This document shows positions 34,391-60,711 of a stretch of 64,000 bases of DNA, in pieces. This DNA comes from Blautia sp. (GTDB taxonomy: Bacteria; Bacillota; Clostridia; Lachnospirales; Lachnospiraceae), in NCBI GenBank assembly GCA_029257805.1, contig JARIAR010000031.1:1-64000 (forward strand), given 5' to 3'. A program made the position numbers and the translations under genes. The notes under the pieces are model-generated. The model searched no databases. It saw only the letters and a list, made by a program, of their open reading frames with translations, and was not told where the DNA came from. Positions within the stretch are counted from its first letter, which is position 1. Each line of letters opens with the position of its first letter.

Positions 34391-34468
34391 ATGTGTAATG
34401 TGTCCATTGTGAAGTGGAATCTGAAGGAAGTTGGAGGTAAATAAAATAATTAGGTATCTCCTATCCGA

Positions 34469-43577: not shown

Positions 43578-44531
43578 ATGAGCAGCAAAATTACGATTAT
43601 TGGAGCCGGAAGTGTAGGAGCAACAATCGCATATACTTTATCCCATGCAGATATTGCTTCAGAAATTGTGTTGATTGATATCAACAGGGAAAAAGTAGAA
43701 GGTGAAGTTATGGATATTGTGCAGGGAACCTGTTTCCGGGATCCAATTTCCATTACAGCAGGAGACTACAAAGATGCAAAAGATTCAGACATTGTAATTA
43801 TTACATCCGGCATTGCCCGTAAACCAGGACAGACAAGAATCGAGTTGACCCAGACAAATGTAAATATTTTAAAAGCTATTACACCGGAAATTGTAAAAGC
43901 TGCACCAGATGCACTTTATATTATGGTAAGTAATCCGGTAGATGTAATGACTTATGTGTTTACAAAGATTTCCGGTCTTCCAGAAAAACAGATTATTGGT
44001 TCCGGTACCATTTTGGATTCCGCAAGATTACGCTGTGGTCTTTCCGAACATTTTAAAGTTGCTCAGAAAAATATTCATGCCTATGTATTTGGGGAGCATG
44101 GAGATACTTCTTTTATTCCGTGGACAGGAGCATATATTTCCGGTGTTAATGTGGATGAGTTTTATGATACAATGCACAACCTTGGAAAGGATGTAGAAAA
44201 GCTGGATAAAGAGGGAATGTTGGAATACGTTCAGAAATCCGGAGGGAAGATTATTGCTAATAAAGGGGCAACTTTCTATGCAGTGTCAACAGCTGTGTGC
44301 AAACTTTGCAGCATTCTTCTGTCTGCTTCTAATTCAATTACAACGGTTTCTTCCATGATGCATGGAGAGTATGGAATCGAAGACGTGTGTCTTAGTACTC
44401 TGACTCTTGTAGGGCCTGAGGGGATTGAAGGAAAAATCCCGATGAGATTGAACCAGGAAGAAATTGAAAAGCTTCGTGCAAGTGCAAAAGCATTAAGAGA
44501 TGTTATTGATCAAATTGATCTTACAGTCTGA
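43578..44531 (+). CDS. LDH-fold NAD-dependent dehydrogenase with malate-type specificity residue
   Basis: 317 residues of the lactate/malate dehydrogenase family. The NAD loop is GAGSVGATIAY, the proton relay His is in GEHGDTSF, and the Asp/Arg pair in LDSARLR. Overall it looks like an L-LDH, but the substrate-specificity position reads GIARKPGQTR, with Arg81. True LDHs have Gln there (QKPGETR) and malate dehydrogenases have Arg (ARKPGMSR). This predicts oxaloacetate/malate rather than pyruvate/lactate. As first gene of the operon with fumarase and fumarate reductase genes, malate dehydrogenase fits well. L-lactate or another 2-hydroxy acid remains possible. Confidence 0.75.
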   Translation: MSSKITIIGAGSVGATIAYTLSHADIASEIVLIDINREKVEGEVMDIVQGTCFRDPISITAGDYKDAKDSDIVIITSGIARKPGQTRIELTQTNVNILKAITPEIVKAAPDALYIMVSNPVDVMTYVFTKISGLPEKQIIGSGTILDSARLRCGLSEHFKVAQKNIHAYVFGEHGDTSFIPWTGAYISGVNVDEFYDTMHNLGKDVEKLDKEGMLEYVQKSGGKIIANKGATFYAVSTAVCKLCSILLSASNSITTVSSMMHGEYGIEDVCLSTLTLVGPEGIEGKIPMRLNQEEIEKLRASAKALRDVIDQIDLTV

Positions 44532-44567
44532 TTAAGATTTCATTACTTAAAGAAAGGACAACAGAGA

Positions 44568-45365
44568 ATGATAAAGTACAGTTATTATCCGGGGTGCACG
44601 CTTCGCACTAAGGCCAAAGAACTGGATCAGTATGCCAGATCTTCTGCATCAGCACTGGGGTTTGAACTGGAAGAAATCGAGGATTGGCAGTGCTGCGGCG
44701 GTGTCTATCCTCTGGGGACTGATGAAATTGCCACTAAACTTTCTTCCGTTCGTGCTCTTAATGAGGCGAAAGAAAAAGAACAAGATCTGATAACGCTTTG
44801 TTCTGCCTGTCATCATGTGATCAAAAGAGTAAATGATGATATGAAAAATGTAGAAGATATTCAGAGACGGGCAAATCAGTATATGGGGCTTACGGTGCCA
44901 TATAAGGGAGAGACAAATGTTCTTCACTACTTAGAGGTGCTGCGTGACAGAGTAGGATTTGATAAAATCAGGGAAAAAGTAGTTCATCCTTTTACCGGGA
45001 AAAAGATTGGAGCATATTATGGATGCCTTCTTCTCAGACCGGGAAAAATTCTTGAATTTGATGATCCGGAAAATCCTTCTATTATAGAAGAGTTTATTCG
45101 GGCTATTGGAGGAGAACCTGTGATTTATCCTTATCGAAATGAATGCTGCGGCGGCTATATTTCTTTAAAAGAAAAAGAGCTGTCTGGGAATATGTGCCAT
45201 AAGATCGTGGAAAGTGCAAAAGGTTTCGGGGCGGAAATGTTGATCACAGCCTGTCCCCTGTGTTTGTATAATTTAAATAAAAGCAATGGAGAAAAATTAC
45301 CTGTTTATTATTTTACAGAACTTCTTGCAGAAGCGCTGGGCGTGAAGGAGGTGTCGGAAAAATGA
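44568..45365 (+). CDS. hdrB: Heterodisulfide reductase subunit B-like protein (HdrB)
   Basis: 265 residues with two CCG domains: the first has YYPGCTLRTKAKELD and WQCCGG, the second GCLLLRP, NECCGGY and TACPLCLYNLN. In HdrB these cysteines bind two non-cubane [4Fe-4S] clusters that reduce disulfides. It is cytosolic and forms HdrABC with the next two genes. In methanogen thiol:fumarate reductase an HdrB-like domain is fused to the Fe-S subunit; here it is a separate gene in the same operon as the fumarate reductase subunits. AAAGGA precedes the ATG. Confidence 0.88.
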   Translation: MIKYSYYPGCTLRTKAKELDQYARSSASALGFELEEIEDWQCCGGVYPLGTDEIATKLSSVRALNEAKEKEQDLITLCSACHHVIKRVNDDMKNVEDIQRRANQYMGLTVPYKGETNVLHYLEVLRDRVGFDKIREKVVHPFTGKKIGAYYGCLLLRPGKILEFDDPENPSIIEEFIRAIGGEPVIYPYRNECCGGYISLKEKELSGNMCHKIVESAKGFGAEMLITACPLCLYNLNKSNGEKLPVYYFTELLAEALGVKEVSEK

Positions 45366-45751
45366 ATACCTCAAAAAAACAGGCGGAAATGATCAGGGAA
45401 ATTAGTGGTACGAATCCTTTGAAATGTATGAAATGTGGAAAGTGTTCGGCTTCCTGTCCTTCTTTTTCCGAGATGGATATTAAACCACATCAGTTTGTGT
45501 CTTATGTGGTAAATGAAGATATTGATGCTCTGGTAAATTCCAAATCTCTTTGGAAGTGCCTTTCCTGTTTTGCCTGCGTAGAACGATGTCCGCGTGATGT
45601 AAAGCCGGGAAAACTTATTGATGCTGCAAGACAGCTTGTGGTAAGGCAGAAAGGACAGGATTATCTGTCCCCAAATGAGATTCCGGAACTTCTTGATCCG
45701 GATCTTCCGCAGCAGCTTTTAGTCAGTGCATTCAGAAGATATAGGAGGTAA
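45362..45751 (+). CDS. hdrC: Heterodisulfide reductase subunit C-like protein (HdrC)
   Basis: 129 residues with two [4Fe-4S] motifs: CMKCGKCSASCP and CLSCFACVERCP. It should wire HdrA to HdrB. Its ATG overlaps the hdrB stop by four bases, showing translational coupling. Confidence 0.9.
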   Translation: MNTSKKQAEMIREISGTNPLKCMKCGKCSASCPSFSEMDIKPHQFVSYVVNEDIDALVNSKSLWKCLSCFACVERCPRDVKPGKLIDAARQLVVRQKGQDYLSPNEIPELLDPDLPQQLLVSAFRRYRR

Positions 45752-45756
45752 ACCTG

Positions 45757-47745
45757 GTGCAGAGAATAGGTGTATTTGTCTGTCATTGCGGAAGTAATAT
45801 TGCTGCAACGGTAGATGTAAAAAAAGTAGCAGAAATGGCTTTGCTGGAGCCTGGTGTTGTCCATGCAGAAGATTATCCATATATGTGTTCAGAAGCAGGA
45901 CAGGCAAAAATTGCAGAGGCTATTAAAGAGAAAAAACTTACAGGAATTGTAGTATGTTCCTGTTCTCCGCGTATGCATGAGGCAACTTTCCGAAAAGCAG
46001 CGGAAAGAGCGGGGTTAAATCCATACATGGTGGAAATTGCCAACATTCGTGAACATTGTTCATGGATTCACAAGGATATGGAAGAGGCAACAAAAAAGGC
46101 CGTGATACTTGCACGGGCAGCCATTGCAAAAGTAAATCTGAATGCTCCTTTGAAACCGGGAGAAAGCCGGGTTACGAAAAGAGCCCTGGTAATTGGAGGC
46201 GGTATTGCGGGAATTCAGACAGCCCTGGATATAGCAGATGCAGGATATGAAGTGGATATTGTAGAAAAGACTCCAAGTATTGGGGGAAGAATGTCCCAGT
46301 TGGATAAAACCTTCCCTACTCTGGACTGCTCAGCCTGTATTTTGACACCAAAGATGGTAGAAGCGGCAGCTCATGAAAAGATAAATATTTATACATATAG
46401 TGAAGTGGAAAAAGTAACAGGATTTGTAGGGGATTTTACAGTAGATATCCGAAAAAAAGCCAGAAGTGTAAACATGGATAAATGTACAGGATGTGGCATT
46501 TGTCAGGAAAAATGTCCATCTAAGAAGATTCCTAGTGAATTTAACAGAGGACTTGGAAACAGAACGGCTATTTATACGCCGTTTGCACAGGCAATCCCCA
46601 ATGTACCTGTTATTGACAGAGAACACTGTATTAAATTCAAAACGGGAAAATGCGGAGTGTGTGCCAAAGTATGTCAGGCAGGCGCTATAGAGTATGACCA
46701 GCAGGATGAGATTGTTACGCAGAAATATGGTGCGATCGTGGTCGCTACTGGTTTTGATATGATTAAACTGGATAAATATGATGAATATGCATATAGCCAG
46801 AGTAAAGATGTAATCACTTCCCTGGAACTGGAACGTATTATGAATGCGGCAGGCCCTACCAAAGGTCATCTTGAGCGTCTTTCTGATGGGAAAGCACCAA
46901 AAGAAATGGTCTTTATCCAGTGTGTAGGAAGCCGTTGTGCGGATGACAGAGGAAAAAGTTACTGTTCCAAGATCTGCTGTATGTATACGGCAAAACATGC
47001 AATGTTAATTCGTGATAAGTATCCGGATGTGAATGTAACGGTATTTTATATAGATGTGCGTACTCCCGGTAAAAACTTTGACGAGTTTTACAGAAGAGCA
47101 GTGGAACAGTATGGAGTAAATTATGTAAAAGGTCAGGTAGGTAAGGTAATTCCTCAGCCGGACGGAAAACTGCTTGTGCAGGGAGTGGATCTTCTTGATA
47201 ATAAGCAGATACTAAAAGAAGCAGATATGGTAGTTCTTGCAGCTGCAATTGAGCCGGAAGCAGATGTACGGCGTATTGCAACGATGCTTACGGCAAGTAT
47301 TGATACAAATAATTTTCTTACAGAAGCCCATGCGAAACTTCGCCCTGTGGAATCACCTACAGCGGGCATTTTCCTTTCTGGTGTATGTCAGGGACCGAAG
47401 GATATTCCGGAGACAGTTGCACAGGCAGGTGCAGCAGCAGTAAAAGCAATTGGACTGCTTGCGAAGGATAAACTGATGACCAATCCATGTACTGCAAAAT
47501 CAGATGAACTTCTTTGTAATGGCTGTTCTACATGTGCGAATGTTTGCCCATATGGTGCCATTACATATGAAGAAAAAGAAGTGAATGATCATGGAATCCG
47601 TGAAATGCGCCGCATTGCTGTTGTAAATGATGCGCTTTGCCAGGGATGCGGAGCCTGCACAGTTACCTGTCCGTCTGGTGCCATGGATCTGCAGGGATTT
47701 TCAAATAGACAGATTATAGCGGAGGTGGATGCAATATGTCGATAG
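45757..47745 (+). CDS. hdrA: Heterodisulfide reductase subunit A-like flavoprotein (HdrA)
   Basis: 662 residues, the full length of HdrA, the flavin-bifurcating subunit. The order is an N-terminal domain with CHCGSNI and CSCSPRMHE, an FAD Rossmann loop (VIGGGIAGIQTALDIADAGY, about residue 145), the cluster-binding CSACILTPK region, a 4Fe-4S motif CTGCGICQEKCPSK with a following CGVCAKVC, and a C-terminal two-cluster ferredoxin domain (CNGCSTCANVCP, CQGCGACTVTCP) that faces ferredoxin. GTG 45757 is the start: AGGAGGT lies seven bases upstream. It lacks the fused extra modules seen in some HdrA types. Confidence 0.9.
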   Translation: MQRIGVFVCHCGSNIAATVDVKKVAEMALLEPGVVHAEDYPYMCSEAGQAKIAEAIKEKKLTGIVVCSCSPRMHEATFRKAAERAGLNPYMVEIANIREHCSWIHKDMEEATKKAVILARAAIAKVNLNAPLKPGESRVTKRALVIGGGIAGIQTALDIADAGYEVDIVEKTPSIGGRMSQLDKTFPTLDCSACILTPKMVEAAAHEKINIYTYSEVEKVTGFVGDFTVDIRKKARSVNMDKCTGCGICQEKCPSKKIPSEFNRGLGNRTAIYTPFAQAIPNVPVIDREHCIKFKTGKCGVCAKVCQAGAIEYDQQDEIVTQKYGAIVVATGFDMIKLDKYDEYAYSQSKDVITSLELERIMNAAGPTKGHLERLSDGKAPKEMVFIQCVGSRCADDRGKSYCSKICCMYTAKHAMLIRDKYPDVNVTVFYIDVRTPGKNFDEFYRRAVEQYGVNYVKGQVGKVIPQPDGKLLVQGVDLLDNKQILKEADMVVLAAAIEPEADVRRIATMLTASIDTNNFLTEAHAKLRPVESPTAGIFLSGVCQGPKDIPETVAQAGAAAVKAIGLLAKDKLMTNPCTAKSDELLCNGCSTCANVCPYGAITYEEKEVNDHGIREMRRIAVVNDALCQGCGACTVTCPSGAMDLQGFSNRQIIAEVDAICR

Positions 47746-48179
47746 AAGCAAAAGAAGAGTTCAGACCGAAAATCGTGGCGTTTTGCTGTAACTGGTGCAG
47801 TTATGCCGGAGCAGATCTGGCAGGAAGCAGCCGTCTTACCTATCCGGCGGATGTAAAAATCATCCGGGTACCGTGTTCCTGTCGTGTAAATCCTATGTTC
47901 ATTTTAAGAGCCTTTGAAAAAGGTGCAGATGGGGTTATTATGTGTGGCTGTCATCCAGGTGATTGTCACTATAGTACAGGAAATTATTATGCAAGAAGAC
48001 GTATGACGCTTTTGTTCTCCATGCTTGATTATATTGGTGTGGAAAATGGACGTACAAGAGTAGAGTGGGTATCTGCCGCAGAGGGTGTAAAGTTTTCTAC
48101 AACGATGAATGAGTTTGTGGAAAAAATATATTCTCTTGGCGAGAATGTCAGACTGGAGGATTTAAGATGCAGGAAATAA
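47736..48179 (+). CDS. flxD: MvhD/FlxD-like iron-sulfur adaptor subunit
   Basis: 147 residues. Cysteines in CCNWCSYAGAD, VPCSCR and CGCHPGDCHYSTGN match MvhD, the [2Fe-2S] protein that links HdrA to its electron donor (hydrogenase in methanogens, the Flx NADH module in Desulfovibrio). It starts inside the 3' end of hdrA (10-base overlap) and overlaps the next gene by 13 bases. No hydrogenase gene is in the operon, and a FlxA-like gene lies downstream, so NAD(P)H is the expected donor. Confidence 0.87.
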   Translation: MSIEAKEEFRPKIVAFCCNWCSYAGADLAGSSRLTYPADVKIIRVPCSCRVNPMFILRAFEKGADGVIMCGCHPGDCHYSTGNYYARRRMTLLFSMLDYIGVENGRTRVEWVSAAEGVKFSTTMNEFVEKIYSLGENVRLEDLRCRK

Positions 48180-49129
48180 TCAATCGGGCAAAAGAACTTC
48201 TGGCATCAGGAGAAGTGGCACGGGTTCTGGGCTGGAAAGCGGGCGATCTGCCATATAATCCGGAGCCTGCATTTTTTGAGAAAGAAGAAGAACTGGAACA
48301 TTTTGTGTACAATGGCTTTTGCGGGGCAAATTTAAGTAAATATATGATTGCTGCATCCAAAATGGACGGAAAAACAATGGTATGTCTTAAACCATGTGAT
48401 ACATATAGTTTTAATCAGCTGATTAAGGAACACCGTGTAGACAGGGAAAAAGCATATATTGTAGGAGTTGGATGTAAAGGAAAACTTGATATTGAAAAAA
48501 TCCGAAAAATGGGGATCAAAGGAATCGAAAGCATTCAGGGAGCCGGTATGGACGATGCGTGTGAAACATTGACGATTCAGACTATTTATGGAGAGAAGAC
48601 CTGCACATATGCAGACGCACTGTTAGAACGATGCCATGTATGCAAAGGAAAAGAACATAAGATTTATGATGAGATCATAGGAGAGTCACGCGATACAAAA
48701 GATGCAGATCGTTTTGCTGAAGTAGAGAAGATCGAGGCGATGAGTCCGGAAGAAAAATTTGCATTTTTTCAGAAGGAATTAAGTAAATGTATCCGCTGTA
48801 ATGCATGCAGAAATGTCTGTCCTGCATGTTCCTGCCGAAAATGTGTATTTGACAGCACAAAATTTGACAGTGCCCAGAAAGCAAATGCGGATTCCTTTGA
48901 GGAAAAAATGTTTCATATTATTCGTGCCTTTCATGTTGCCGGAAGATGTACAGATTGCGGTGAATGCAGCAGAGTGTGTCCGCAGGGAATTCCCCTTCAT
49001 CTTTTTAACCGTAAATTTATTAAAGATATTGACGCACTTTATGGAGAGTATCAGGCGGGAGAAGATACAGATTCCAAAGGGCCGCTGACCAGCTTTACCT
49101 TTGATGATGCAGAGCCTGGCAGCGTATGA
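48167..49129 (+). CDS. FlxB-like iron-sulfur protein
   Basis: 320 residues. The N-terminal half resembles F420-reducing hydrogenase beta-type or related Fe-S proteins (CLKPCDTYSFNQLI; GVGCKGKLD; CHVCKGKEH). The C-terminal part carries two [4Fe-4S] sites, CIRCNACRNVCPACSC and CTDCGECSRVCPQG. It is probably an electron wire between the NADH:flavin module and MvhD/HdrA. I assign it to the FlxB/FlxC role by position and motif content, not by a specific signature. Confidence 0.72.
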   Translation: MQEIINRAKELLASGEVARVLGWKAGDLPYNPEPAFFEKEEELEHFVYNGFCGANLSKYMIAASKMDGKTMVCLKPCDTYSFNQLIKEHRVDREKAYIVGVGCKGKLDIEKIRKMGIKGIESIQGAGMDDACETLTIQTIYGEKTCTYADALLERCHVCKGKEHKIYDEIIGESRDTKDADRFAEVEKIEAMSPEEKFAFFQKELSKCIRCNACRNVCPACSCRKCVFDSTKFDSAQKANADSFEEKMFHIIRAFHVAGRCTDCGECSRVCPQGIPLHLFNRKFIKDIDALYGEYQAGEDTDSKGPLTSFTFDDAEPGSV

Positions 49130-49144
49130 GAAAGGGGATAAGGT

Positions 49145-50188
49145 ATGTATAAGATTGCAAAAGAAAATCTTCCGGCATTGTTTCGACTGATTGCAGGAGA
49201 ACAGGAATTATATTTGCCGGTGAGAATAAATGGGCAGGTTAATTTTGCGGCATGGAAAGAAGATGCAGAGGTAGATCTGGATACTTTAAAAACGGTAAAA
49301 TCGCCGAAAGATGCCTTTTTCCCTCAAAGTGAGAACTTATATACCTGTGTACGGGAAGGGAAAAAGATTAAAGTAGAACCTCAAACTTTAAAAGAACAGG
49401 ATTTTGTTGTGTTTGGAATGAAAGCCTGTGATGTAAAAGGGATAGAAGTTCTGGATAGGGTTTTTCTGGCAGATCCTGTTGACAGTTTTTATGCAGCAAG
49501 AAGAGATCACGGGACAATCGTTGCTATGGCCTGTCATGAACCGGAAGAAACATGTTTTTGTACAGTTTTTGGTGTTGATTGTGCAGAACCTGCGGCAGAT
49601 GTCGCAACATGGATGCTGGATGGAGAACTGTACTGGAAGCCTCTGACTTTAAAAGGGGAAAAACTTACGGAATTGGTGAAATCTCTTTTGAATTCTGCAG
49701 ATGAAAAAGATGAGAGCAATGTGGAAGAAGAAAAAGAAACGATCAGAGCAATCGTAGAGAAGCTTCCGTATTCAACCCTTTCTCTTGAGGGATGGAATGG
49801 AGATGCATTAAAAGAAAAATTTGACTCCGCTCTTTGGGAGGAATTGTATAAACCCTGTCTGGCCTGTGGAACCTGCACGTTTGTATGCCCTACATGTCAG
49901 TGCTATGATATTAAAGATTATGATACAGGAAATGGAGTGCAGAGATATCGCTGCTGGGATTCCTGTATGTATTCCGATTTTACCATGATGGCTCATGGAA
50001 ACAATCGTACAAGTCAGATGCAGAGATTCCGCCAGCGTTTTATGCATAAACTGGTGTATTTCCCTGCAAATAATGACGGAATGTATTCCTGTGTCGGTTG
50101 CGGCAGATGCGTAGAGAAATGTCCGTCAGCTTTGAATATTGTAAAAGTGATCAAATCTTTTCAGGATCAGGGAGGTGACAAGAAATGA
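49145..50188 (+). CDS. FlxC/AsrA-like 4Fe-4S dicluster protein
   Basis: 347 residues. A helical N-terminal domain (LYLPVRINGQVNFAAW) with CHEPEETCFC in its middle is followed by two cluster motifs near the end, CLACGTCTFVCPTCQC and CVGCGRCVEKCPSA. This layout is typical of sulfite reductase subunit A (AsrA), sulfhydrogenase beta and FlxC. With the FlxA-like protein, whose start overlaps its stop by four bases, it should form the NAD(P)H-oxidising arm of the complex. Confidence 0.78.
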   Translation: MYKIAKENLPALFRLIAGEQELYLPVRINGQVNFAAWKEDAEVDLDTLKTVKSPKDAFFPQSENLYTCVREGKKIKVEPQTLKEQDFVVFGMKACDVKGIEVLDRVFLADPVDSFYAARRDHGTIVAMACHEPEETCFCTVFGVDCAEPAADVATWMLDGELYWKPLTLKGEKLTELVKSLLNSADEKDESNVEEEKETIRAIVEKLPYSTLSLEGWNGDALKEKFDSALWEELYKPCLACGTCTFVCPTCQCYDIKDYDTGNGVQRYRCWDSCMYSDFTMMAHGNNRTSQMQRFRQRFMHKLVYFPANNDGMYSCVGCGRCVEKCPSALNIVKVIKSFQDQGGDKK

Positions 50189-51039
50189 GTGAATGCACAT
50201 GTCATAAAAATTATACATTGGATACATTGATTCCGAAGGTGGGAGTTATTACAGATATTAGAGAAGAGACACCGGATGTGAAAACGTTCCGTGTGAACGC
50301 TCCGGAAGGTGGAAAGCTTTTTGATCATATGCCAGGGCAGTGTGCGATGCTTTGCGTTCCTGGAATCAGTGAAGGAATGTTTTCTATCACCTCTTCTCCT
50401 ACAAATACAGAATATCAGGAGTTCAGTATAAAAAAGTGTGGAATACTTACCGATTATCTGCACAGCCTTCAGGTGGGAGATGAAATTACAGTACGTGGTC
50501 CGTATGGAAATCATTTTCCGGTAGAAACAGAACTGAAAGGGAAGAATCTTCTTTTTGTTGCGGGAGGAATCGGACTTGCACCTCTCCGTTCAGTAATTAA
50601 TTATGTGCTGGATAATCGGGAAAACTACGGAACGGTAGATATTCTTTATGGTTCTCGTTCGGCAGATGATCTGGTACAGCTGAAAGAAATCCAGGAAGTA
50701 TGGATGAAAACAGAAGGGGTAAATGTATATCTTACCATTGACCGTGAGCAGGAAGGATGGGACGGACATGTAGGGTTTGTTCCAAATTATCTGAAGGAAA
50801 TCGGTTTTGATACAGATAAAACAGCCCTTGTATGCGGACCGCCTATTATGATCAAGTTCGTACTTGCCGGTTTAAAGGAAATGGGATTTGAAAATGAACA
50901 GGTTTATACCACGCTGGAACTTCGTATGAAATGTGGTGTGGGAAAATGCGGACGCTGTAATATAGGATCAAAATATGTTTGCAAAGACGGACCTGTATTT
51001 CGTTTTGATGAAATTGACGAATTGCCTAATGAATATTAA
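50185..51039 (+). CDS. flxA: FlxA/AsrB-like FAD- and NAD(P)-binding electron-transfer subunit
   Basis: 284 residues of the ferredoxin-NADP reductase superfamily. It has an N-terminal beta barrel with the FAD site (FSITSSPTN), an NAD(P) Rossmann domain (FVAGGIGLAPLRSVINY; VDILYGSRSADDL; CGPPIMIKFV) and a C-terminal [2Fe-2S] motif CGVGKCGRCNIG with a following Cys. Such subunits (PyrK, AsrB, FlxA) take hydride from NAD(P)H and pass electrons to Fe-S partners. Translational coupling to the upstream gene supports a tight complex. Confidence 0.85.
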   Translation: MSECTCHKNYTLDTLIPKVGVITDIREETPDVKTFRVNAPEGGKLFDHMPGQCAMLCVPGISEGMFSITSSPTNTEYQEFSIKKCGILTDYLHSLQVGDEITVRGPYGNHFPVETELKGKNLLFVAGGIGLAPLRSVINYVLDNRENYGTVDILYGSRSADDLVQLKEIQEVWMKTEGVNVYLTIDREQEGWDGHVGFVPNYLKEIGFDTDKTALVCGPPIMIKFVLAGLKEMGFENEQVYTTLELRMKCGVGKCGRCNIGSKYVCKDGPVFRFDEIDELPNEY

Positions 51040-51063
51040 TTGAGAAAGGACTGGTATTTTACG

Positions 51064-51738
51064 ATGGATAAAATGGTGAATGTATTCTTTTTCGGTAAGA
51101 AATACAGTGTGCCTGCAGATCTTACAATTATGACGGCAATGGAATATGCCGGATATACTTTGAAAAGAGGATGTGGCTGCCGCCATGGTTTTTGCGGCGC
51201 CTGTGCTACGATTTATAGAATTAAGGGAAAAAATGAATTGAAAACATGTCTCGCCTGTCAGACACAGGTAGAAGAAGGAATGTATGTAGCAAGCATTCCG
51301 TTTTTTCCCACAGATAAAAGAAAATATGATATAGAAGAGATTAAGCCTGATCATCAGATCATGATGGAACTCTATCCGGAAATCTATAGCTGCATAGGAT
51401 GTAATGCCTGTACAAAAGCCTGTACACAGGATTTGAATGTAATGCAGTATATCGCATATGCACAGAGAGGGGAACTGGAAAAATGTGCAGAAGAATCGTT
51501 TGACTGTGTTGGCTGCGGATGCTGTTCCGTAAGATGTCCGGCTGGAATTTCTCATCCAATGGTAGGACTTCTTGCAAGACGTCTTACAGGTAAATATATT
51601 GCTCCGGAATCAAAGCATCTGAAAAACAGAGTGGAAGAAATCCATGAAGGTGCCTATGATGAACTGATTGAGCAGATCATGCAGAAACCAATCACAGAAA
51701 TGCAGGAACTTTATAATACAAGAGACATTGAGAAATAA
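51064..51738 (+). CDS. Fumarate reductase iron-sulfur subunit (TfrB/FrdB-like)
   Basis: 224 residues from ATG 51064 (AAAGGA 13 bases upstream; a TTG at 51040 directly after the previous stop is less likely). The N-terminal domain holds a [2Fe-2S] pattern, GCGCRHGFCGACATIY and TCLAC. The C-terminal domain holds two clusters, CIGCNACTKACTQ and CVGCGCCSVRCPAG. This is the FrdB/SdhB order, but without the CCG domain fused in methanogen TfrB. No membrane anchor gene follows, so the reductase is probably cytosolic. Confidence 0.82.
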   Translation: MDKMVNVFFFGKKYSVPADLTIMTAMEYAGYTLKRGCGCRHGFCGACATIYRIKGKNELKTCLACQTQVEEGMYVASIPFFPTDKRKYDIEEIKPDHQIMMELYPEIYSCIGCNACTKACTQDLNVMQYIAYAQRGELEKCAEESFDCVGCGCCSVRCPAGISHPMVGLLARRLTGKYIAPESKHLKNRVEEIHEGAYDELIEQIMQKPITEMQELYNTRDIEK

Positions 51739-51750
51739 GGAGGACAACCT

Positions 51751-53352
51751 ATGTTTACACCAGAAATGCTTGAGTCGATCAAAAAGGTGGAGGCTACCAG
51801 AGATGAACGTATGGGAATGGAGCCAAGACGAATGACTGCAGATGAAAAGGATGCCCTTCTGAAGGCTTTTCATCCGGACTACCGTGAAGACGGATTTGTG
51901 GAAATTAAAATCGGACCTAATAAAGGACAGAAGGTGCCTACAGAACTGGGACATCTTTTGCATTCTAATAGCCGTCTCTTGACAGAACATGTAGATTTGA
52001 GTAAAGTAGATTACGATGTAGACGTGTTAGTGATCGGAGGAGGCGGAGCCGGCGCTTCTGCTGCTATTGAAGCGCATGAGGCTGGGGCTAACGTTATGAT
52101 CGTTACAAAACTGCGTATTGGTGATGCAAATACCATGATGGCTGAGGGTGGAATACAGGCAGCAGATAAAGAAAATGATTCTCCTGTACAGCATTATCTG
52201 GATGCTTTTGGAGGTGGTCATTTTGCTGCGAGACCAGAGCTTTTAAAGAGACTTGTTATGGAAGCACCGGATGCGATCCAATGGCTGAATAAGCTGGGCG
52301 TTATGTTTGATAAAGATGCGGAAGGTAATATGGTTACGACACATGGCGGTGGTACATCCAGGAAGAGAATGCATGCATGTAAGGATTATTCCGGTGCGGA
52401 AATTATGCGTACACTTCGGGATGAAGTAATTAACCGTGGAATTCCGGTTGTAGAATTTACGTCTGCAGTAGAATTGATCAAAGATGAAAAAGGTCAGGTT
52501 GCAGGTGCGGTTCTTTTAAATATGGAAACAGAAGATTATATGGTGGCAAGAGCAAAGACGGTTATTATTGCAACAGGAGGAGCCGGTCGCCTTCATTATC
52601 AGAACTTTCCTACTTCCAATCATTACGGAGCAACAGCAGATGGCTTGATCCTTGGATATCGTGCAGGAGCGCCTCTTCTTTATCAGGATACGATTCAGTA
52701 TCATCCTACAGGAGTTGCGTATCCGGCTCAGATTTATGGGGCACTTGTAACAGAAAAAGTTCGCTCTCTTGGAGCTATGCTGGTAAATGCAGAGGGAGAA
52801 GCTTTTATGCATCCTCTTGAAACCCGGGATGTTTCCGCTGCTTCTATTATCCGCGAATGTACGGAAAGAAAAAAAGGAGTAGAGACACCTCTTGGAAGTG
52901 GAGTATGGCTGGATACACCGATGATCGAACGTCTTGGAGGAGAAGGAACCATTGAGAAACGAATTCCTGCAATGCTTCGTATGTATATGAATTATGATAT
53001 TGATATGCGTAAAGTTCCGATCCTTGTATATCCGACTCTTCATTATCAAAATGGAGGTCTGGAAATTGGAGGGGACGGATTTACAAAAGCAATTTCGAAT
53101 CTTCTTGTTGCCGGAGAAGCAGTAGGTGGAATCCATGGAAGAAATCGTCTTATGGGCAATTCTCTTCTGGATATTATTGTATTTGGCCGAAACGCCGGTA
53201 AAGCTGCTGCAGCAAGAGCAAAAGAAGTGGAACTTGGAACAATGAGCCTTTCCCATGTTGAAAAATATGCAGAAGAACTGAAAAATGCAGGGATGGAATC
53301 AGAGGATGTATCTCCGCTGCTCCTTCCGAAATATGCACGTCATGAGAGATAA
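51751..53352 (+). CDS. Fumarate reductase flavoprotein subunit
   Basis: 533 residues of the FrdA/SdhA/NadB family. The FAD loop is VLVIGGGGAGASAAIEAHEAG (about residue 90). Active-site segments are intact: MAEGG, HGGGTSRKR, HPTGVAYPAQ, LVTEKVRSLGA, LHYQNGG and GRNRLMGNSLLD. The histidine that in E. coli FrdA binds FAD covalently (RSHTVAAEGG) is replaced by Asn (ANTMMAEGG), so FAD should be non-covalent, as in soluble relatives. L-aspartate oxidase is an alternative for the fold, but the neighbouring FrdB-like and fumarase genes favour fumarate reduction. AGGAGG precedes the ATG. Confidence 0.85.
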   Translation: MFTPEMLESIKKVEATRDERMGMEPRRMTADEKDALLKAFHPDYREDGFVEIKIGPNKGQKVPTELGHLLHSNSRLLTEHVDLSKVDYDVDVLVIGGGGAGASAAIEAHEAGANVMIVTKLRIGDANTMMAEGGIQAADKENDSPVQHYLDAFGGGHFAARPELLKRLVMEAPDAIQWLNKLGVMFDKDAEGNMVTTHGGGTSRKRMHACKDYSGAEIMRTLRDEVINRGIPVVEFTSAVELIKDEKGQVAGAVLLNMETEDYMVARAKTVIIATGGAGRLHYQNFPTSNHYGATADGLILGYRAGAPLLYQDTIQYHPTGVAYPAQIYGALVTEKVRSLGAMLVNAEGEAFMHPLETRDVSAASIIRECTERKKGVETPLGSGVWLDTPMIERLGGEGTIEKRIPAMLRMYMNYDIDMRKVPILVYPTLHYQNGGLEIGGDGFTKAISNLLVAGEAVGGIHGRNRLMGNSLLDIIVFGRNAGKAAAARAKEVELGTMSLSHVEKYAEELKNAGMESEDVSPLLLPKYARHER

Positions 53353-53365
53353 GGAGATGAATACC

Positions 53366-54208
53366 ATGCGTGAAATTGAAGTAAGTAAGCTTACAGATGT
53401 GGTAGAGAAGCTTTGCATAGAGGCAAATGAACATTTGCCTGAAGATGTGAAATGTGCAATTAAAAACTGCCGTGCTTGTGAAGACGGTGAAATTGCAAAA
53501 GGAGTTCTTGATAATATTATAGAAAATTTTGAAATTGCAGATGAAGAATGTGTACCGATCTGCCAGGATACAGGAATGGCGTGTGTTTTTCTGGAAATTG
53601 GTCAGGATGTTCATTTGGTAGGCGGTAACCTTGAAGATGCTATTAATGAAGGGGTACGTCGTGGTTATGACAAGGGATATTTGAGAAAATCTGTTGTAAA
53701 GGATCCGATACGCCGTGGAAATACAGGGGACAATACCCCTGCCATGATCTATACAGAAATCGTTCCTGGAGAAAATGTAAAAGTTACAGTAGGTCCAAAA
53801 GGGTTTGGAAGTGAAAATATGAGTGCAATCCGTATGTTCAAACCTTCTGCCGGACTTCAGGGTATTAAAGATTTTATTTTGGAAACAGTAGAAACAGCCG
53901 GTCCCAATCCATGTCCACCTATGGTAGTCGGTGTTGGTATAGGCGGAACTTTTGATAAAGCGGCATTTCTTGCAAAAAAAGCTTTGATGCGTTCTCTGGA
54001 TTCTGAAAATCCGGATCCGTTTTATGCAGATCTGGAAAAGGAAATGCTGGAAAAAATCAATAAGCTTGGAATAGGACCGCAGGGATTTGGAGGAAAAACA
54101 ACAGCAATTGGTCTTAATATCGAAACACTTCCGACTCATATTGCTGGAATGCCTTGTGCGATTAATATAAATTGTCATGTAACCCGTCACAAAACGGAGG
54201 TGATCTAA
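53366..54208 (+). CDS. Fumarate hydratase class I, alpha subunit
   Basis: 280 residues, the N-terminal half of a two-subunit, oxygen-sensitive [4Fe-4S] class I fumarase (FumA/TtdA family). Cluster cysteines are seen in [11 protein letters not shown], and [15 protein letters not shown] and the [11 protein letters not shown] segment are typical. ATG 53366 is chosen because AAGGAG lies nine bases upstream; ATG 53357 overlaps it. L-tartrate dehydratase is a sister family, but the operon (malate dehydrogenase, fumarate reductase) points to malate/fumarate. Confidence 0.88.
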
Positions 54209-54766
54209 ATGGAAAAACATATAACATTGCCATTAACCGAAGAATTGGCACAAACTCTTCATGCAGGTGATCGTGTTCTTCTTACAGGAACAATTTATAC
54301 CTCCAGAGATGCCGGACATAAGAGAATGTGTGAAGCACTTGAAAAAGGAGAAAAGCTTCCTTTTGATCCTATGGATGCAACCATTTATTATGTGGGACCA
54401 ACTCCTGCAAAACCGGGTCAGGTGATTGGTTCGGCCGGTCCTACAACCAGTGGTCGTATGGATGCATATGCGCCAACTATGATGTCTGTAGGCGCAAGAG
54501 GAATGATTGGAAAAGGAGCGCGTCTTCCGGAAGTTGTAGAGGCTATGAAAAAATACAGTGGAGTGTATTTCGGTGCGATTGGCGGAGCAGGAGCACTTCT
54601 TGCAAAATCCATTAAGAAAGCGGAATTAATCGCTTATGAAGACCTTGGAGCAGAAGCACTTAGAAAACTTTATGTAGAGGACATGCCGCTTGTGGTGATC
54701 ATCGACAGCAAAGGGAATAATCTGTATGAAGAAGGTCGTGCAGAATATTTAAAGAATATAAAATAA
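54209..54766 (+). CDS. Fumarate hydratase class I, beta subunit
   Basis: 185 residues, the C-terminal half of class I fumarase: GDRVLLTGTIYTSRDAGHKR at the start, GSAGPTTSGRMDAYAP in the middle and EDMPLVVIIDSKGNNLY near the end. Its ATG follows the alpha stop codon directly, with GGAGGTGA inside the alpha 3' end. It completes the route from malate to fumarate for the upstream reductase. Confidence 0.9.
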   Translation: MEKHITLPLTEELAQTLHAGDRVLLTGTIYTSRDAGHKRMCEALEKGEKLPFDPMDATIYYVGPTPAKPGQVIGSAGPTTSGRMDAYAPTMMSVGARGMIGKGARLPEVVEAMKKYSGVYFGAIGGAGALLAKSIKKAELIAYEDLGAEALRKLYVEDMPLVVIIDSKGNNLYEEGRAEYLKNIK

Positions 54767-54811: not shown

Positions 54812-55516
54812 ATGAAAGAAGATAAAAAAAATAGAAGACAGCATTTACATTTATGTGTTTCGGATATTCAGATGTCAGAGGCATTTGTGAATAATATGTT
54901 TCTGGCGTTTTCCGGCGGACTTCAGGATGCCTATACATATAACACAAGAGACGGAGTGTTTTCCAACGCACAGACAGGAAATGTAGTTCTTATGAGCCAG
55001 CTGATCATGTCCGGAAAATGGCGGGCGGCCCTGCACTATTTGTTTCCACTTATTGCGTTTATTGCAGGTGTGATCGTAGTGGAGGGGATTCAGGGGAAAT
55101 TCGGAAATGCGAAACGCCTGCACTGGAGACAGGGAGTTCTGTTGACAGAGATCCTAATATTATTTGGTGTGGGATTTATTCCATATAAATGGAATATTAT
55201 AGCGACTGTTCTTGTATCTTTTTCCTGTGCCATGCAGGTGCAGGCATTCCGTAAGGTAAGAGGGTATGCCTATGCAAGCACGATGTGTATTGGCAATATA
55301 CGAAGTGGAACAGAAGCGTTATCTGCTTATTTCAGGGAAAAAAATCCGGAACTGTTAAAAAAAGCAGGATATTATTTTGGAATTATACTGTTTTTTGCAA
55401 TAGGAGCCGGAATTGGCGGAAATCTTTCGATAAAATATGGGATTTCTGTTATTTGGATATGTTGTGTGTGCCTTTTTATAAGTTTTTGTCTGATGTTTGT
55501 GGAAAAAGTAGAATGA
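54812..55516 (+). CDS. YoaK/DUF1275 family membrane protein
   Basis: 234 residues with about six membrane helices. The family marks are FSGGLQDAYTYNTRDGVFSNAQTGN near the start and YAYASTMCIGNIRSGTEAL later. DUF1275 proteins have no proven function. It lies 45 bases after the fumarase beta gene in the same direction and no terminator was seen between them, so it may be the last gene of that transcript. Confidence 0.8.
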   Translation: MKEDKKNRRQHLHLCVSDIQMSEAFVNNMFLAFSGGLQDAYTYNTRDGVFSNAQTGNVVLMSQLIMSGKWRAALHYLFPLIAFIAGVIVVEGIQGKFGNAKRLHWRQGVLLTEILILFGVGFIPYKWNIIATVLVSFSCAMQVQAFRKVRGYAYASTMCIGNIRSGTEALSAYFREKNPELLKKAGYYFGIILFFAIGAGIGGNLSIKYGISVIWICCVCLFISFCLMFVEKVE

Positions 55517-55551: not shown

Positions 55552-55577
55552 GACAATAGTATAATTCCATAGTGAAC

Positions 55578-55838
55578 GTATTAAGTGCTGTTTGCAAAAT
55601 GCAGACAGAAGAGGGAATCAGGTGAGAAACCTGAGCGATCCGGTCACTGTAACAGAGGAGTGAGTCTCGCAAAAATCCATTGTGCATAGCATGAGAAGGA
55701 GAGATAAACGAAGATTCTGGAGCCAGGAAACCTGCTTAATATGGCAAGGTTAAACTTCCGTGTAAAGTGTAACGACCAATTTCAGGGATTCCGCAGCCCT
55801 GAAACGTTGTCCGCTTTTTCGAGAGCGGGCATTTTTTA
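55578..55838 (+). promoter_or_regulatory. Cobalamin (B12) riboswitch with terminator
   Basis: The order of conserved blocks fits the adenosylcobalamin aptamer: GGGAA at about 55614, GGTGAGAAACC (55621-55631), CGGTCACTGTAA (from about 55641) and the B12 box AGCCAGGAAACCTGC (55721-55735). A P13-like stem TTTCAGGG/CCCTGAAA (55780-55787, 55797-55804) follows. An intrinsic terminator comes next (GTCCGCT at 55809-55815, AGCGGGC at 55824-55830, ATTTTTT). High B12 should stop transcription before the downstream cysteine-rich small-domain gene. Confidence 0.9.
55809..55837 (+). terminator. Riboswitch expression-platform terminator
   Basis: GTCCGCT/AGCGGGC stem (one G-T pair), loop TTTTCGAG, then TTTTTT. 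Part of the cobalamin riboswitch. Confidence 0.75.
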
Positions 55839-56033: not shown

Positions 56034-56321
56034 ATGGAAAAACCATATTGGGAAGATAAAGAATTTTCTTTTTTTAGTCATAAAAAATGTGAATATTTTC
56101 CGTGCCACAAAGGAGCAAATCCTGAGGAATTTAATTGTCTTTTCTGCTATTGTCCGCTTTATGCACTGGGGAAAGACTGTGGAGGAAATTTTACTTATAC
56201 AGAACAGGGGTATAAAGATTGTACCAATTGCCTTGTTCCTCATAAAAAGAACAACTATGGATATATAACAGGAAAATATCAGGAGCTTGCAGCTCGAATT
56301 GCGAAAATGGATGAAAAATAA
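56034..56321 (+). CDS. Cysteine-rich small domain protein (cobalamin-linked family)
   Basis: 95 residues. Eight cysteines occur in ordered pairs and triplets (KCEYFPC, NCLFCYCPLYALGKDC, DCTNCLVPH), matching the cysteine-rich small domain (PF04071), which is often found near or fused to cobalamin-biosynthesis proteins. The cobalamin riboswitch upstream supports a role in B12 metabolism or uptake. Its chemistry is unknown; metal or Fe-S binding is likely. GGAGG precedes the ATG. It is the only gene on the riboswitch transcript before a strong terminator. Confidence 0.85.
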   Translation: MEKPYWEDKEFSFFSHKKCEYFPCHKGANPEEFNCLFCYCPLYALGKDCGGNFTYTEQGYKDCTNCLVPHKKNNYGYITGKYQELAARIAKMDEK

Positions 56322-59910: not shown

Positions 59911-59919
59911 GAGAAAATA

Positions 59920-60711
59920 ATGAGTGATTTAGAGAAAAAAGGCAGAATATTTGATATTCAGCGTTATTCTATCCATGACGGACCGGGGATTCGTACGATT
60001 GTATTTTTGAAAGGCTGTGTACTCAGATGCCGGTGGTGTTGTAATCCTGAATCTCAGGAATATGAAATCCAGACAATGAAAGTGCAGGGCGAAGACAAAA
60101 TCATTGGCAGCGATGTGACAGTACGGGAAGTTATGGAAGAAGTAGAAAAAGACAGAGCGTATTATTATCGCTCCGGAGGAGGAATGACTCTTTCGGGAGG
60201 AGAATGCTTCTGTCAACCGGAGTTTGCGACAGCTCTTTTGCGAGAAGCAAAAGAGCGCGGGCTTCATACAGCTGTGGAAAGCATGGCGTGTGCACCTTGG
60301 GAAGATATAAAGGCAGCTTTGCCTTATCTGGATTTGTATTTAATGGACATAAAACATATGAATCCTGTAAAACATAAAGAATTTACAGGCCGTTCCAATG
60401 AACTTATGTTGGAAAATGCAAGACGGGTGGCATTGTCCGGGCAAACAAAACTTGTAATTCGTGTTCCTGTAATTCCAACGTTCAATGCAACAATAGAAGA
60501 AATACAGGAAATTGCCAGATTTGCGGCAACCCTGCCAGGGGTAGAAAAAATCCATCTTCTGCCGTATCACCGACTGGGACAGGATAAATATACAGGTCTT
60601 GGACGGGAATACGGTATGGAAGGGATTCTTCCGCCTTCTGCAGAAGATATGGAAGCACTAAAAAAGGCAGTTCATGCTGTTTGCAATCTGGATTGTCAGA
60701 TTGGAGGGTGA
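59920..60711 (+). CDS. Glycyl-radical enzyme activating protein (short form)
   Basis: 263 residues, a radical SAM enzyme that installs the glycyl radical in the diol dehydratase. The SAM cluster motif is CVLRCRWCCNPE (C-x3-C-x2-C), with TLSGGECFCQ and LLPYHRLGQDKY downstream. Diol-dehydratase and choline-lyase activases usually carry an extra ferredoxin-like insert with two more clusters directly after the radical motif; here only about 20 residues (EYEIQTMKVQGEDKIIGSDV) replace it. The short form looks natural, not a deletion, as the frame is clean. It is coupled to the dehydratase gene (nine bases) and the shell gene (one base). Confidence 0.88.
   Translation: MSDLEKKGRIFDIQRYSIHDGPGIRTIVFLKGCVLRCRWCCNPESQEYEIQTMKVQGEDKIIGSDVTVREVMEEVEKDRAYYYRSGGGMTLSGGECFCQPEFATALLREAKERGLHTAVESMACAPWEDIKAALPYLDLYLMDIKHMNPVKHKEFTGRSNELMLENARRVALSGQTKLVIRVPVIPTFNATIEEIQEIARFAATLPGVEKIHLLPYHRLGQDKYTGLGREYGMEGILPPSAEDMEALKKAVHAVCNLDCQIGG

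What the first reader, a model, noticed from the sequence alone, without database searches (positions are those of the whole stretch)
43578..54766. Hdr-Flx-fumarate reductase operon: candidate soluble, electron-bifurcating NADH:fumarate reductase
Twelve closely spaced or overlapping genes encode a malate-type dehydrogenase, HdrB, HdrC, HdrA, MvhD/FlxD, two FlxB/FlxC-like proteins, FlxA, a 2Fe-2S/4Fe-4S FrdB, FrdA and both class I fumarase subunits. Established: HdrABC with MvhD or Flx modules performs flavin-based bifurcation, and methanogen TfrAB couples thiols to fumarate. Seen: no membrane anchor (FrdC/D, cytochrome b) and no hydrogenase. Inference: electrons from NADH enter by FlxA, split at HdrA, and reduce fumarate (high potential) and ferredoxin (low potential), giving succinate and reduced ferredoxin in the cytosol. 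This would link succinate formation to energy conservation without a quinone. I do not know of a characterised complex with this exact set.
Basis: partly seen in the sequence, partly recalled or inferred. Interest (0 to 1): 0.95.

Follow-up and report, generated by a model that had tools for sequence, protein, structure and literature searches.

The report
Ferredoxin-linked soluble fumarate reductase operon
A gut bacterium carries a gene set that looks like a soluble enzyme complex making succinate from NADH while saving part of the energy as reduced ferredoxin; the idea was proposed before for one heat-loving relative, but the gene set turns out to be common in gut Clostridia and still awaits a test at the bench.

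Summary
The twelve genes are there as described (43578-54766, +). The nine-gene core HdrB-HdrC-HdrA-MvhD-FlxB-FlxC-FlxA-FrdB-FrdA was found in one order in 100 loci (29 of 36 class, 66 of 80 named, 5 of 7 family); of the other 23, 22 are cut by contig ends and one is rearranged. FrdA keeps its catalytic residues, FrdB and HdrB all cluster cysteines. HdrA aligns end to end with HdrA of solved complexes. The operon encodes no membrane protein. Best reading: a soluble NADH:fumarate reductase that also reduces ferredoxin. Ferredoxin reduction is inferred, not shown. The idea is not new: a Pseudoclostridium thermosuccinogenes 'succinate operon' of the same make-up was given this mechanism in 2019-2020, and flxABCD-hdrABC with tfrAB was noted in rTCA clusters. 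New here: presence in Blautia luti, B. wexlerae and many other Clostridia, and, outside the class, the same FrdBA pair beside several other electron-input modules, 17 of 38 loci having no Hdr gene in the stretch read.

The parts
43578..44531 (+). malate-type dehydrogenase (Ldh/MDH family, 317 aa)
   Evidence: LDH/MDH family, best NCBIfam models are LDH; Arg in the specificity loop, Gln in two of the three aligned LDH-named chains
44568..45365 (+). HdrB, two CCG domains (265 aa)
   Evidence: all ten CCG cysteines invariant in 22 sequences; profile matches 5odc_B and 7bkb_B over nearly full length
45362..45751 (+). HdrC, 4Fe-4S dicluster (129 aa)
45757..47745 (+). HdrA, FAD and Fe-S, predicted bifurcation site (662 aa, GTG start)
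   Evidence: residues 3-660 align to 5-649 of 5odc_A, 690 bits
47736..48179 (+). MvhD/FlxD (147 aa)
   Evidence: FlpD PF02662, 182.7 bits
48167..49129 (+). FlxB, adaptor related to the FdhB-type subunit of Hdr complexes (320 aa)
   Evidence: sequence match and fold match to 7bkb_E and 8rvu_E
49145..50188 (+). FlxC, sulfhydrogenase-beta/AsrA-like Fe-S protein (347 aa)
   Evidence: 9nez_B, residues 3-334
50185..51039 (+). FlxA, FAD/NAD(P)H and 2Fe-2S, predicted NADH entry (284 aa)
   Evidence: 9nez_C, residues 27-281
51064..51738 (+). FrdB, one 2Fe-2S and two 4Fe-4S motifs (224 aa from ATG; 232 aa from TTG 51040)
   Evidence: twelve cluster cysteines in 80 of 80
51751..53352 (+). FrdA flavoprotein (533 aa)
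   Evidence: H318, E335, R359, H431, R466 in 79 of 79; T334 in 78 of 79
53357..54208 (+). class I fumarase alpha subunit
   Evidence: NF004885, 422 bits, cut-off 276
54209..54766 (+). class I fumarase beta subunit (185 aa)
   Evidence: NF005310, 299 bits, cut-off 238

Best explanation
The nine proteins HdrB, HdrC, HdrA, MvhD, FlxB, FlxC, FlxA, FrdB and FrdA form one soluble cytosolic complex. NADH gives two electrons to the FAD of FlxA; they pass through FlxC, the FdhB-like adaptor FlxB and MvhD to the FAD of HdrA, which splits them. One electron of each pair goes through HdrC and HdrB to FrdB and FrdA, where fumarate becomes succinate; the other goes to ferredoxin: 2 NADH + fumarate + Fd(ox) -> 2 NAD+ + succinate + Fd(red, 2 e-). 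The neighbouring malate dehydrogenase and fumarase genes supply fumarate from oxaloacetate. Ferredoxin is then used by Rnf, where present, or by hydrogenase. Shown: gene content, order, conserved residues, homology of each part. Inferred: complex formation, order of the wire, NADH as donor, the split at HdrA, the ferredoxin product.
For: Nine-gene core in one order in 29 of 36 class loci (in L035 the last gene is itself cut), 6 others cut by contig ends, 1 rearranged; in 66 of 80 named loci, the other 14 cut by contig ends; in 5 of 7 family loci, 2 cut. The rearranged order Fum-FrdBA-HdrBCA-MvhD-FlxBCA (L038/L203) still keeps the two modules together. FrdB distances follow those of the Hdr/Flx proteins (r 0.84-0.93, 91 loci). 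HdrA aligns end to end with 5odc_A; FlxA/FlxC with sulfhydrogenase gamma/beta; FlxB with the FdhB-type chain of Hdr complexes. The methanogen TfrB model is matched by FrdB at positions 19-179 and by HdrB at 265-487, so the two exist as a natural fusion. FrdA catalytic residues (T334 in 78 of 79, the others in 79 of 79) and FrdB cysteines (80 of 80) are conserved. Sdh_cyt anchor over cut-off in 0 of 55 genomes. RnfC over cut-off in 33 of 55, the window genome included. Energetics: with fumarate/succinate +33 mV and NAD -320 mV (passages) and ferredoxin -420 to -500 mV (recalled), about -49 to -33 kJ per fumarate (my arithmetic).
Against: No biochemistry for such a complex was found. A sister design, MetFV-HdrABC-MvhD, did not reduce ferredoxin (passage). 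22 of 55 FrdB-positive genomes lack RnfC over the cut-off. Outside the class the same FrdBA pair stands without any Hdr gene in the fetched stretch in 17 of 38 loci, so FrdBA does not need this input. The correlations have no housekeeping control; fumarase follows FrdB as closely (0.85-0.86) as Hdr/Flx do, MDH less (0.74), and FrdA follows the Hdr/Flx proteins somewhat less (0.81-0.85). The FrdB model was poor and no complex could be modelled. Only one membrane-anchor family was searched.
Confidence: 0.65

Rival explanations
1. One soluble NADH:fumarate reductase complex without bifurcation: HdrABC-MvhD is only a wire and ferredoxin is not reduced.
For: MetFV-HdrABC-MvhD of Moorella has NADH-oxidising activity at HdrA and was not seen to reduce ferredoxin (passage). 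22 of 55 genomes lack RnfC over cut-off.
Against: HdrA keeps full-length similarity to HdrA of bifurcating complexes, and the whole FlxABC-MvhD-HdrABC set is kept, more than NADH-driven fumarate reduction would seem to need (inference).
Confidence: 0.17
2. Two enzymes joined by a small thiol: Hdr-Flx reduces a disulfide at HdrB and FrdBA oxidises the thiol, as TfrAB does in methanogens.
For: HdrB keeps both CCG cluster sites in 22 of 22 sequences. FrdA scores best with the TfrA model among NCBIfam models (337 bits).
Against: FrdB has no CCG part; HdrB is the only CCG protein among the ten proteins scanned, so the thiol would have to meet the same HdrB twice. Five phylum loci have HdrC-HdrB-FrdB with no HdrA in the stretch, which suits direct wiring but would also suit a thiol-oxidising enzyme.
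Confidence: 0.12
3. FrdA acts on another substrate, such as L-aspartate (NadB-like) or another enoate.
For: FrdA reaches 250 bits with the nadB model, the window genome has no NadB over the cut-off, and NadB controls share the Asn at the flavin site.
Against: 250 bits against a cut-off of 452.75; two NadB controls carry Ser where 78 of 79 FrdA have Thr; the neighbours are fumarase and MDH.
Confidence: 0.04
4. The complex runs backwards, oxidising succinate with NAD+ and reduced ferredoxin.
For: Such complexes are reversible in principle (inference).
Against: About 33 kJ or more uphill under standard conditions (my arithmetic from potentials and a recalled ferredoxin potential); Asn replaces the covalent-flavin His in 79 of 79 FrdA, which is recalled to go with fumarate reduction rather than succinate oxidation.
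Confidence: 0.02

Closest known systems
'Succinate operon' of Pseudoclostridium thermosuccinogenes (CDQ83_RS03365-03315; PMC7282089, passages and abstract)
   Same: Fumarase, a Flx-Hdr block of seven locus tags and a fumarate reductase of two locus tags; the same bifurcation proposed there
   Different: Sequences not compared here. By locus tags the fumarase stands at the other end and no malate dehydrogenase is named; it was studied by transcriptomics and flux sums in the passages seen, not by enzyme purification
FlxABCD-HdrABC of Desulfovibrio vulgaris (Ramos 2015, seen as a reference only)
   Same: HdrABC with FlxABCD, NADH side
   Different: No FrdBA and no fumarase in that set (recalled)
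Methanogen thiol:fumarate reductase TfrAB
   Same: FrdA is nearest to TfrA among NCBIfam models; the TfrB model combines FrdB- and HdrB-like parts
   Different: HdrB is a separate gene; NAD(P)H module present; TfrA score 337 against cut-off 718
HdrABC-MvhAGD and Fdh-Hdr complexes of methanogens (5odc, 7bkb)
   Same: HdrA, HdrB and an FdhB-type adaptor by sequence; MvhD by family model
   Different: Donor module is Flx (NADH), not hydrogenase or formate dehydrogenase; acceptor FrdBA, not heterodisulfide
flxABCD-hdrABC with tfrAB and korABCD in rTCA clusters of Gammaproteobacteria (PMC6315080, passages)
   Same: Flx-Hdr genes interspersed with a Tfr-type fumarate reductase, complex suggested
   Different: Carbon fixation clusters with 2-oxoglutarate:ferredoxin oxidoreductase; other phylum; sequences not compared here

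Membership tests
Flx-Hdr-linked fumarate reductase (P. thermosuccinogenes type) | Flx-Hdr block of seven genes directly before frdBA, with fumarase in the operon | tested here: met
   the reference operon is known to me only from the description
Flx-Hdr-linked fumarate reductase (P. thermosuccinogenes type) | NADH-dependent fumarate reduction coupled to ferredoxin reduction | not testable with these tools
   only a proposal in the literature seen
HdrA-type flavin-based bifurcating complexes | Full-length HdrA with FAD domain and Fe-S motifs | tested here: met
   residues 3-660 to 5odc_A 5-649, 690 bits. NCBIfam HdrA2 gives 795 bits, under that model's cut-off 1100; positions 641-773 of the model match the separate MvhD gene
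HdrA-type flavin-based bifurcating complexes | Bifurcation measured | not testable with these tools
   needs the purified complex
Thiol:fumarate reductase TfrAB | TfrB with FrdB and CCG parts in one chain | tested here: not met
   FrdB and HdrB are separate genes hitting different parts of NF004898
Thiol:fumarate reductase TfrAB | TfrA equivalog score | tested here: not met
   337 bits, cut-off 718
Quinol:fumarate reductase / SDH (complex II) | Membrane anchor gene in the operon | tested here: not met
   twelve genes, none with a membrane segment in a hydropathy scan
Quinol:fumarate reductase / SDH (complex II) | Membrane anchor subunit elsewhere in the genome | tested here: inconclusive
   PF01127 in 0 of 55 over cut-off, no match in the window genome; other anchor families (PF02300, PF02313) were not searched; three Blautia genomes have weaker PF01127 matches, in B. 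luti within a second SdhCAB-like set
Quinol:fumarate reductase / SDH (complex II) | FrdB with a 3Fe-4S third cluster (recalled) | tested here: not met
   four Cys at the third motif in 80 of 80
L-aspartate oxidase NadB | NadB equivalog score | tested here: not met
   250 bits, cut-off 452.75

The most novel reading that the evidence does not exclude
FrdBA of this type is a self-standing fumarate-reducing cassette that members of this phylum have plugged into different electron sources: NADH through Hdr-Flx (two gene orders), HdrC-HdrB without HdrA, a tandem of two HdrA with MvhD but no NADH subunit, a malic-enzyme operon, a multi-span FMN/Fe-S membrane set, and a cytochrome b561 protein. In the window's class it has settled on the Hdr-Flx form, so that succinate-forming gut commensals such as Blautia luti and B. 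wexlerae would gain ferredoxin, and thereby Rnf ion transport or hydrogen, from every fumarate reduced, which the published energy balance for B. luti leaves out.
Probability: 0.45. Interest if true: 0.75.

Novelty: new member of a known kind. Interest (0 to 1): 0.55.

Why it matters
How gut Clostridia that form succinate reduce fumarate, and what they gain by it, is not settled in the papers I saw. If fumarate reduction also yields reduced ferredoxin, each succinate would pay for part of an ATP through Rnf or drive hydrogen formation, and the energy and hydrogen budgets of common gut bacteria would need recalculation. The 2026 B. luti study (passages; strain DSM 14534) reckons with a plain NADH-dependent fumarate reductase, and the search terms hdr and flx do not occur in its main text, while B. 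luti strain MSK.16.34 carries the full nine-gene core (L098). The mechanism can be tested in a cultured commensal.

Tried and rejected
Rejected: L-aspartate oxidase; methanogen TfrAB in the strict sense; an operon-encoded quinol-linked enzyme. Thought less likely: plain lactate dehydrogenase for gene 1 (Arg in the specificity loop; but the best PDB match, named LDH, has Arg too). Led nowhere: the FrdB model had mean pLDDT 60.8 and was not used for a fold search; promoter-like sites 33 against 28.9 in shuffles and terminator-like sites 11 against 8.0. PEPCK_ATP is weak in the window genome (61.9 bits; three of the 18 positive genomes are that weak), so the route to oxaloacetate there is not settled. 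MM-CoA mutase is absent from 19 of 21 genomes, so succinate is probably an end product there. I could not tell which of two fumarate reductase-like sets of B. luti the published activity belongs to. The 2019 preprint on P. thermosuccinogenes was not read. Of 39 non-own class loci I fetched 36 around the hit (G099, G255 and G274 left out); of 38 phylum loci all 38; of 7 family loci all 7. On the FrdA tree one of 80 rows was dropped for length or a stop, L220 and L231 were not put in, and contig-cut class and family loci were labelled with the Hdr-Flx form without seeing all nine genes.
Full report
What is there. The window holds twelve + strand genes from 43578 to 54766 with gaps of 0-36 bp or overlaps of 4-13 bp (later starts taken for FrdB and FumA): a malate-type dehydrogenase, HdrB, HdrC, HdrA, MvhD, FlxB, FlxC, FlxA, FrdB, FrdA and the two class I fumarase subunits. 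A hydropathy scan finds no membrane segment in any of them. The window lies in a 2.60 Mb genome of 68 contigs with one FrdA match. The nearest named records are mostly Lachnospiraceae and other Clostridia, many from animal guts.

The parts. Gene 1 scores best as L-lactate dehydrogenase but carries Arg in the specificity loop. In the three PDB alignments shown, two LDH-named chains have Gln there and the best, 1y6j, has Arg; Arg is the mark of malate dehydrogenase (recalled). HdrA aligns over residues 3-660 with the HdrA of the solved methanogen complex 5odc (690 bits). The HdrB profile matches HdrB of 5odc, 7bkb and 8rvu over nearly its full length, and its ten CCG cysteines are invariant in 22 sequences. 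FlxC and FlxA match the beta and gamma subunits of sulfhydrogenase 1 (9nez). FlxB matches the FdhB-type chain of the Fdh-Hdr and Elp-Hdr complexes by sequence and by fold (7bkb_E, 8rvu_E, from a model of mean pLDDT 75.6). I take it to be the adaptor between FlxC and MvhD (inference).

FrdA and FrdB. In 79 FrdA sequences of all architectures seen, the positions H318, E335, R359, H431 and R466 are invariant and T334 holds in 78; their catalytic roles are recalled from E. coli fumarate reductase. Asn stands in all 79 where E. coli FrdA has the His that binds FAD covalently (recalled); the two NadB controls in the same alignment also have Asn, the two Blautia SdhA-like proteins Gln. FrdB keeps four cysteines for a 2Fe-2S cluster and eight for two 4Fe-4S clusters in 80 of 80, whereas quinol-linked FrdB has a 3Fe-4S third cluster (recalled).

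How widespread and how fixed. FrdB was found in 40 of 291 genomes of the class (window genome included), in 22 families and 28 of 181 genera, and in 8 of 60 genomes of the family (window genome included), so it is patchy even among near relatives. Around 36 of the 39 other class loci the nine genes stood in order in 29 (in L035 the last gene is cut), were cut by a contig end in 6, and were rearranged to Fum-FrdBA-HdrBCA-MvhD-FlxBC in one, L038, where FlxA follows next (L203). In the 7 other family loci 5 are complete and 2 cut. Of the 80 kept, 66 have the nine genes in order and 14 are cut by contig ends; named carriers of the full core include Blautia luti, B. wexlerae, B. schinkii, B. glucerasea, Oliverpabstia intestinalis and [Clostridium] asparagiforme. 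Over 91 non-redundant complete loci, FrdB distances correlate with those of the Hdr and Flx proteins at 0.84-0.93, with fumarase at 0.85-0.86 and with MDH at 0.74; FrdA correlates with Hdr/Flx at 0.81-0.85. There was no housekeeping control.

Other architectures. In a draw of 398 genomes of the phylum 39 have FrdB (window genome included); the other 38 are labelled same phylum, that is outside the class. I read all 38 loci: 1 with the Hdr-Flx core before FrdBA (HdrC before HdrB); 4 with FrdBA before HdrBCA-MvhD-FlxB-FlxC (the stretch ends there); 11 with HdrC-HdrB-HdrA, further HdrA-like sequence, MvhD and a FlxB-like protein but no FlxC or FlxA match (two of them cut); 5 with HdrC-HdrB-FrdB and no HdrA (one cut); 6 with fumarase, malic enzyme and FrdBA (one cut); 2 with a membrane protein of 12-13 predicted spans and an FMN-binding Fe-S protein; 3 with a Fe-S/cytochrome b561 protein; 6 others. 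So Hdr genes stand beside FrdBA in 21 of 38. The domain calls come from one member of each kind, the rest from clustering and profiles, spans. On a tree of 79 FrdA these eight architectures need 11 changes where 7 is the least possible. I read FrdBA as a cassette that can take electrons from several modules, with HdrB or HdrC as a usual contact. The curated TfrB model supports that contact, since FrdB matches its first part and HdrB its last.

Genome context. RnfC over the cut-off is present in 33 of 55 FrdB-positive genomes, the window genome among them. The Sdh_cyt anchor (PF01127) is over cut-off in none of 55; other anchor families were not searched. Three Blautia genomes have weaker matches; the one in B. 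luti lies in an SdhCAB-like set of a 179-aa protein with 5 predicted spans, a 518-aa flavoprotein and a 237-aa protein. MM-CoA mutase is missing in 19 of 21 genomes, and ATP-type PEPCK is present in 18 of 21, weakly in three of these, the window genome included.

Mechanism. The best-supported reading is one soluble complex: NADH to FlxA, FlxC, FlxB, MvhD, then HdrA, where electrons split to fumarate (HdrC, HdrB, FrdB, FrdA) and to ferredoxin. With +33 mV and -320 mV from passages and ferredoxin at -420 to -500 mV (recalled) this gives about -49 to -33 kJ per fumarate (my arithmetic), enough to drive the split. Only the parts, their order and conservation are shown; assembly and ferredoxin reduction are inferred. 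The main doubt is that a comparable Hdr complex, MetFV-HdrABC-MvhD of Moorella, was not seen to reduce ferredoxin (PMC8578096, passage).

Prior work. PMC7282089 (passages and abstract) describes a 'succinate operon' of P. thermosuccinogenes made of fumarase, seven Flx-Hdr locus tags and two fumarate reductase tags, reports about 4-fold higher expression at low CO2 (not significant for all subunits) and cites a 2019 preprint (not seen) for the bifurcation idea. That it is the same nine genes I infer from the description; I did not compare sequences. PMC6315080 (passages) found flxABCD-hdrABC interspersed with tfrAB and korABCD in rTCA clusters and suggested a complex. PMC8542988 (passages) reports Tfr with Mvh-Hdr in Candidatus Celaenobacter. 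I found no purification or assay of such a complex in the searches, which cover only the open PMC library. The B. luti study (PMC12773636, passages) measured viologen-linked fumarate reductase in extract (504 mU/mg on glucose in its table, 499 in its text), reports frdAB highly transcribed, and reckons with an NADH-dependent enzyme; the terms hdr and flx have no occurrence in its main text.

Verdict. Real, conserved, and of a kind already proposed; new as to host range and as to the range of modules around FrdBA. Interest 0.55: little surprise for a specialist who knows the 2019-2020 proposal, but an open question about energy conservation in gut bacteria becomes directly testable.

Noticed in passing
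L192, L193, L210, L212, L214, L216, L218, L219, L222, L223, L224: FrdBA preceded by HdrC-HdrB-HdrA, a second HdrA-like chain (1058, 1489 and 1098 aa in L192, L193 and L210), MvhD and a FlxB-like protein but no FlxC or FlxA match; a malic enzyme in front in 7 of the 11. The electron donor is unknown.
   Followed up: partly
L198, L201, L207: FrdBA followed by a 4Fe-4S/cytochrome b561 protein (PF01292 in L201, the others by clustering); in L201 a MmgE/PrpD protein stands in front and in L207 proteins of the same cluster flank it. Possibly a membrane-linked reductase for another dicarboxylate.
   Followed up: partly
L186, L197: Fumarase, a membrane protein of 12-13 predicted spans (no Pfam match in L186 at E 1e-6), an FMN-binding Fe-S protein and small Fe-S proteins before FrdBA: a possible membrane input module.
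   Followed up: partly
L202:7572-10362 (Blautia luti genome): A second, SdhCAB-like set with a 179-aa protein of 5 predicted spans, which complicates the assignment of the fumarate reductase activity measured in B. luti extract.
   Followed up: partly
window 55566-55753: Cobalamin riboswitch (RF00174, 96 bits) downstream of the operon, before a small cysteine-rich ORF at 56034-56321.
   Followed up: no
window 57385-60711: Glycyl radical enzyme of the PFL2/glycerol dehydratase group and its activating enzyme; no substrate-specific NCBIfam model over its cut-off.
   Followed up: no
window 54812-55516: Membrane protein (4 predicted spans) 45 bp behind the fumarase gene, without NCBIfam match at E 1e-8; similar genes lie behind the operon in 9 of 80 named loci.
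   Followed up: no
window 34403-34454: Short match to a group II intron model (RF02001, 36.3 bits).
   Followed up: no
G000:C65:38990-40180: The only PEPCK_ATP match of the window genome is weak (61.9 bits, 569-aa frame), as in G303 and G269: perhaps a divergent carboxykinase.
   Followed up: no
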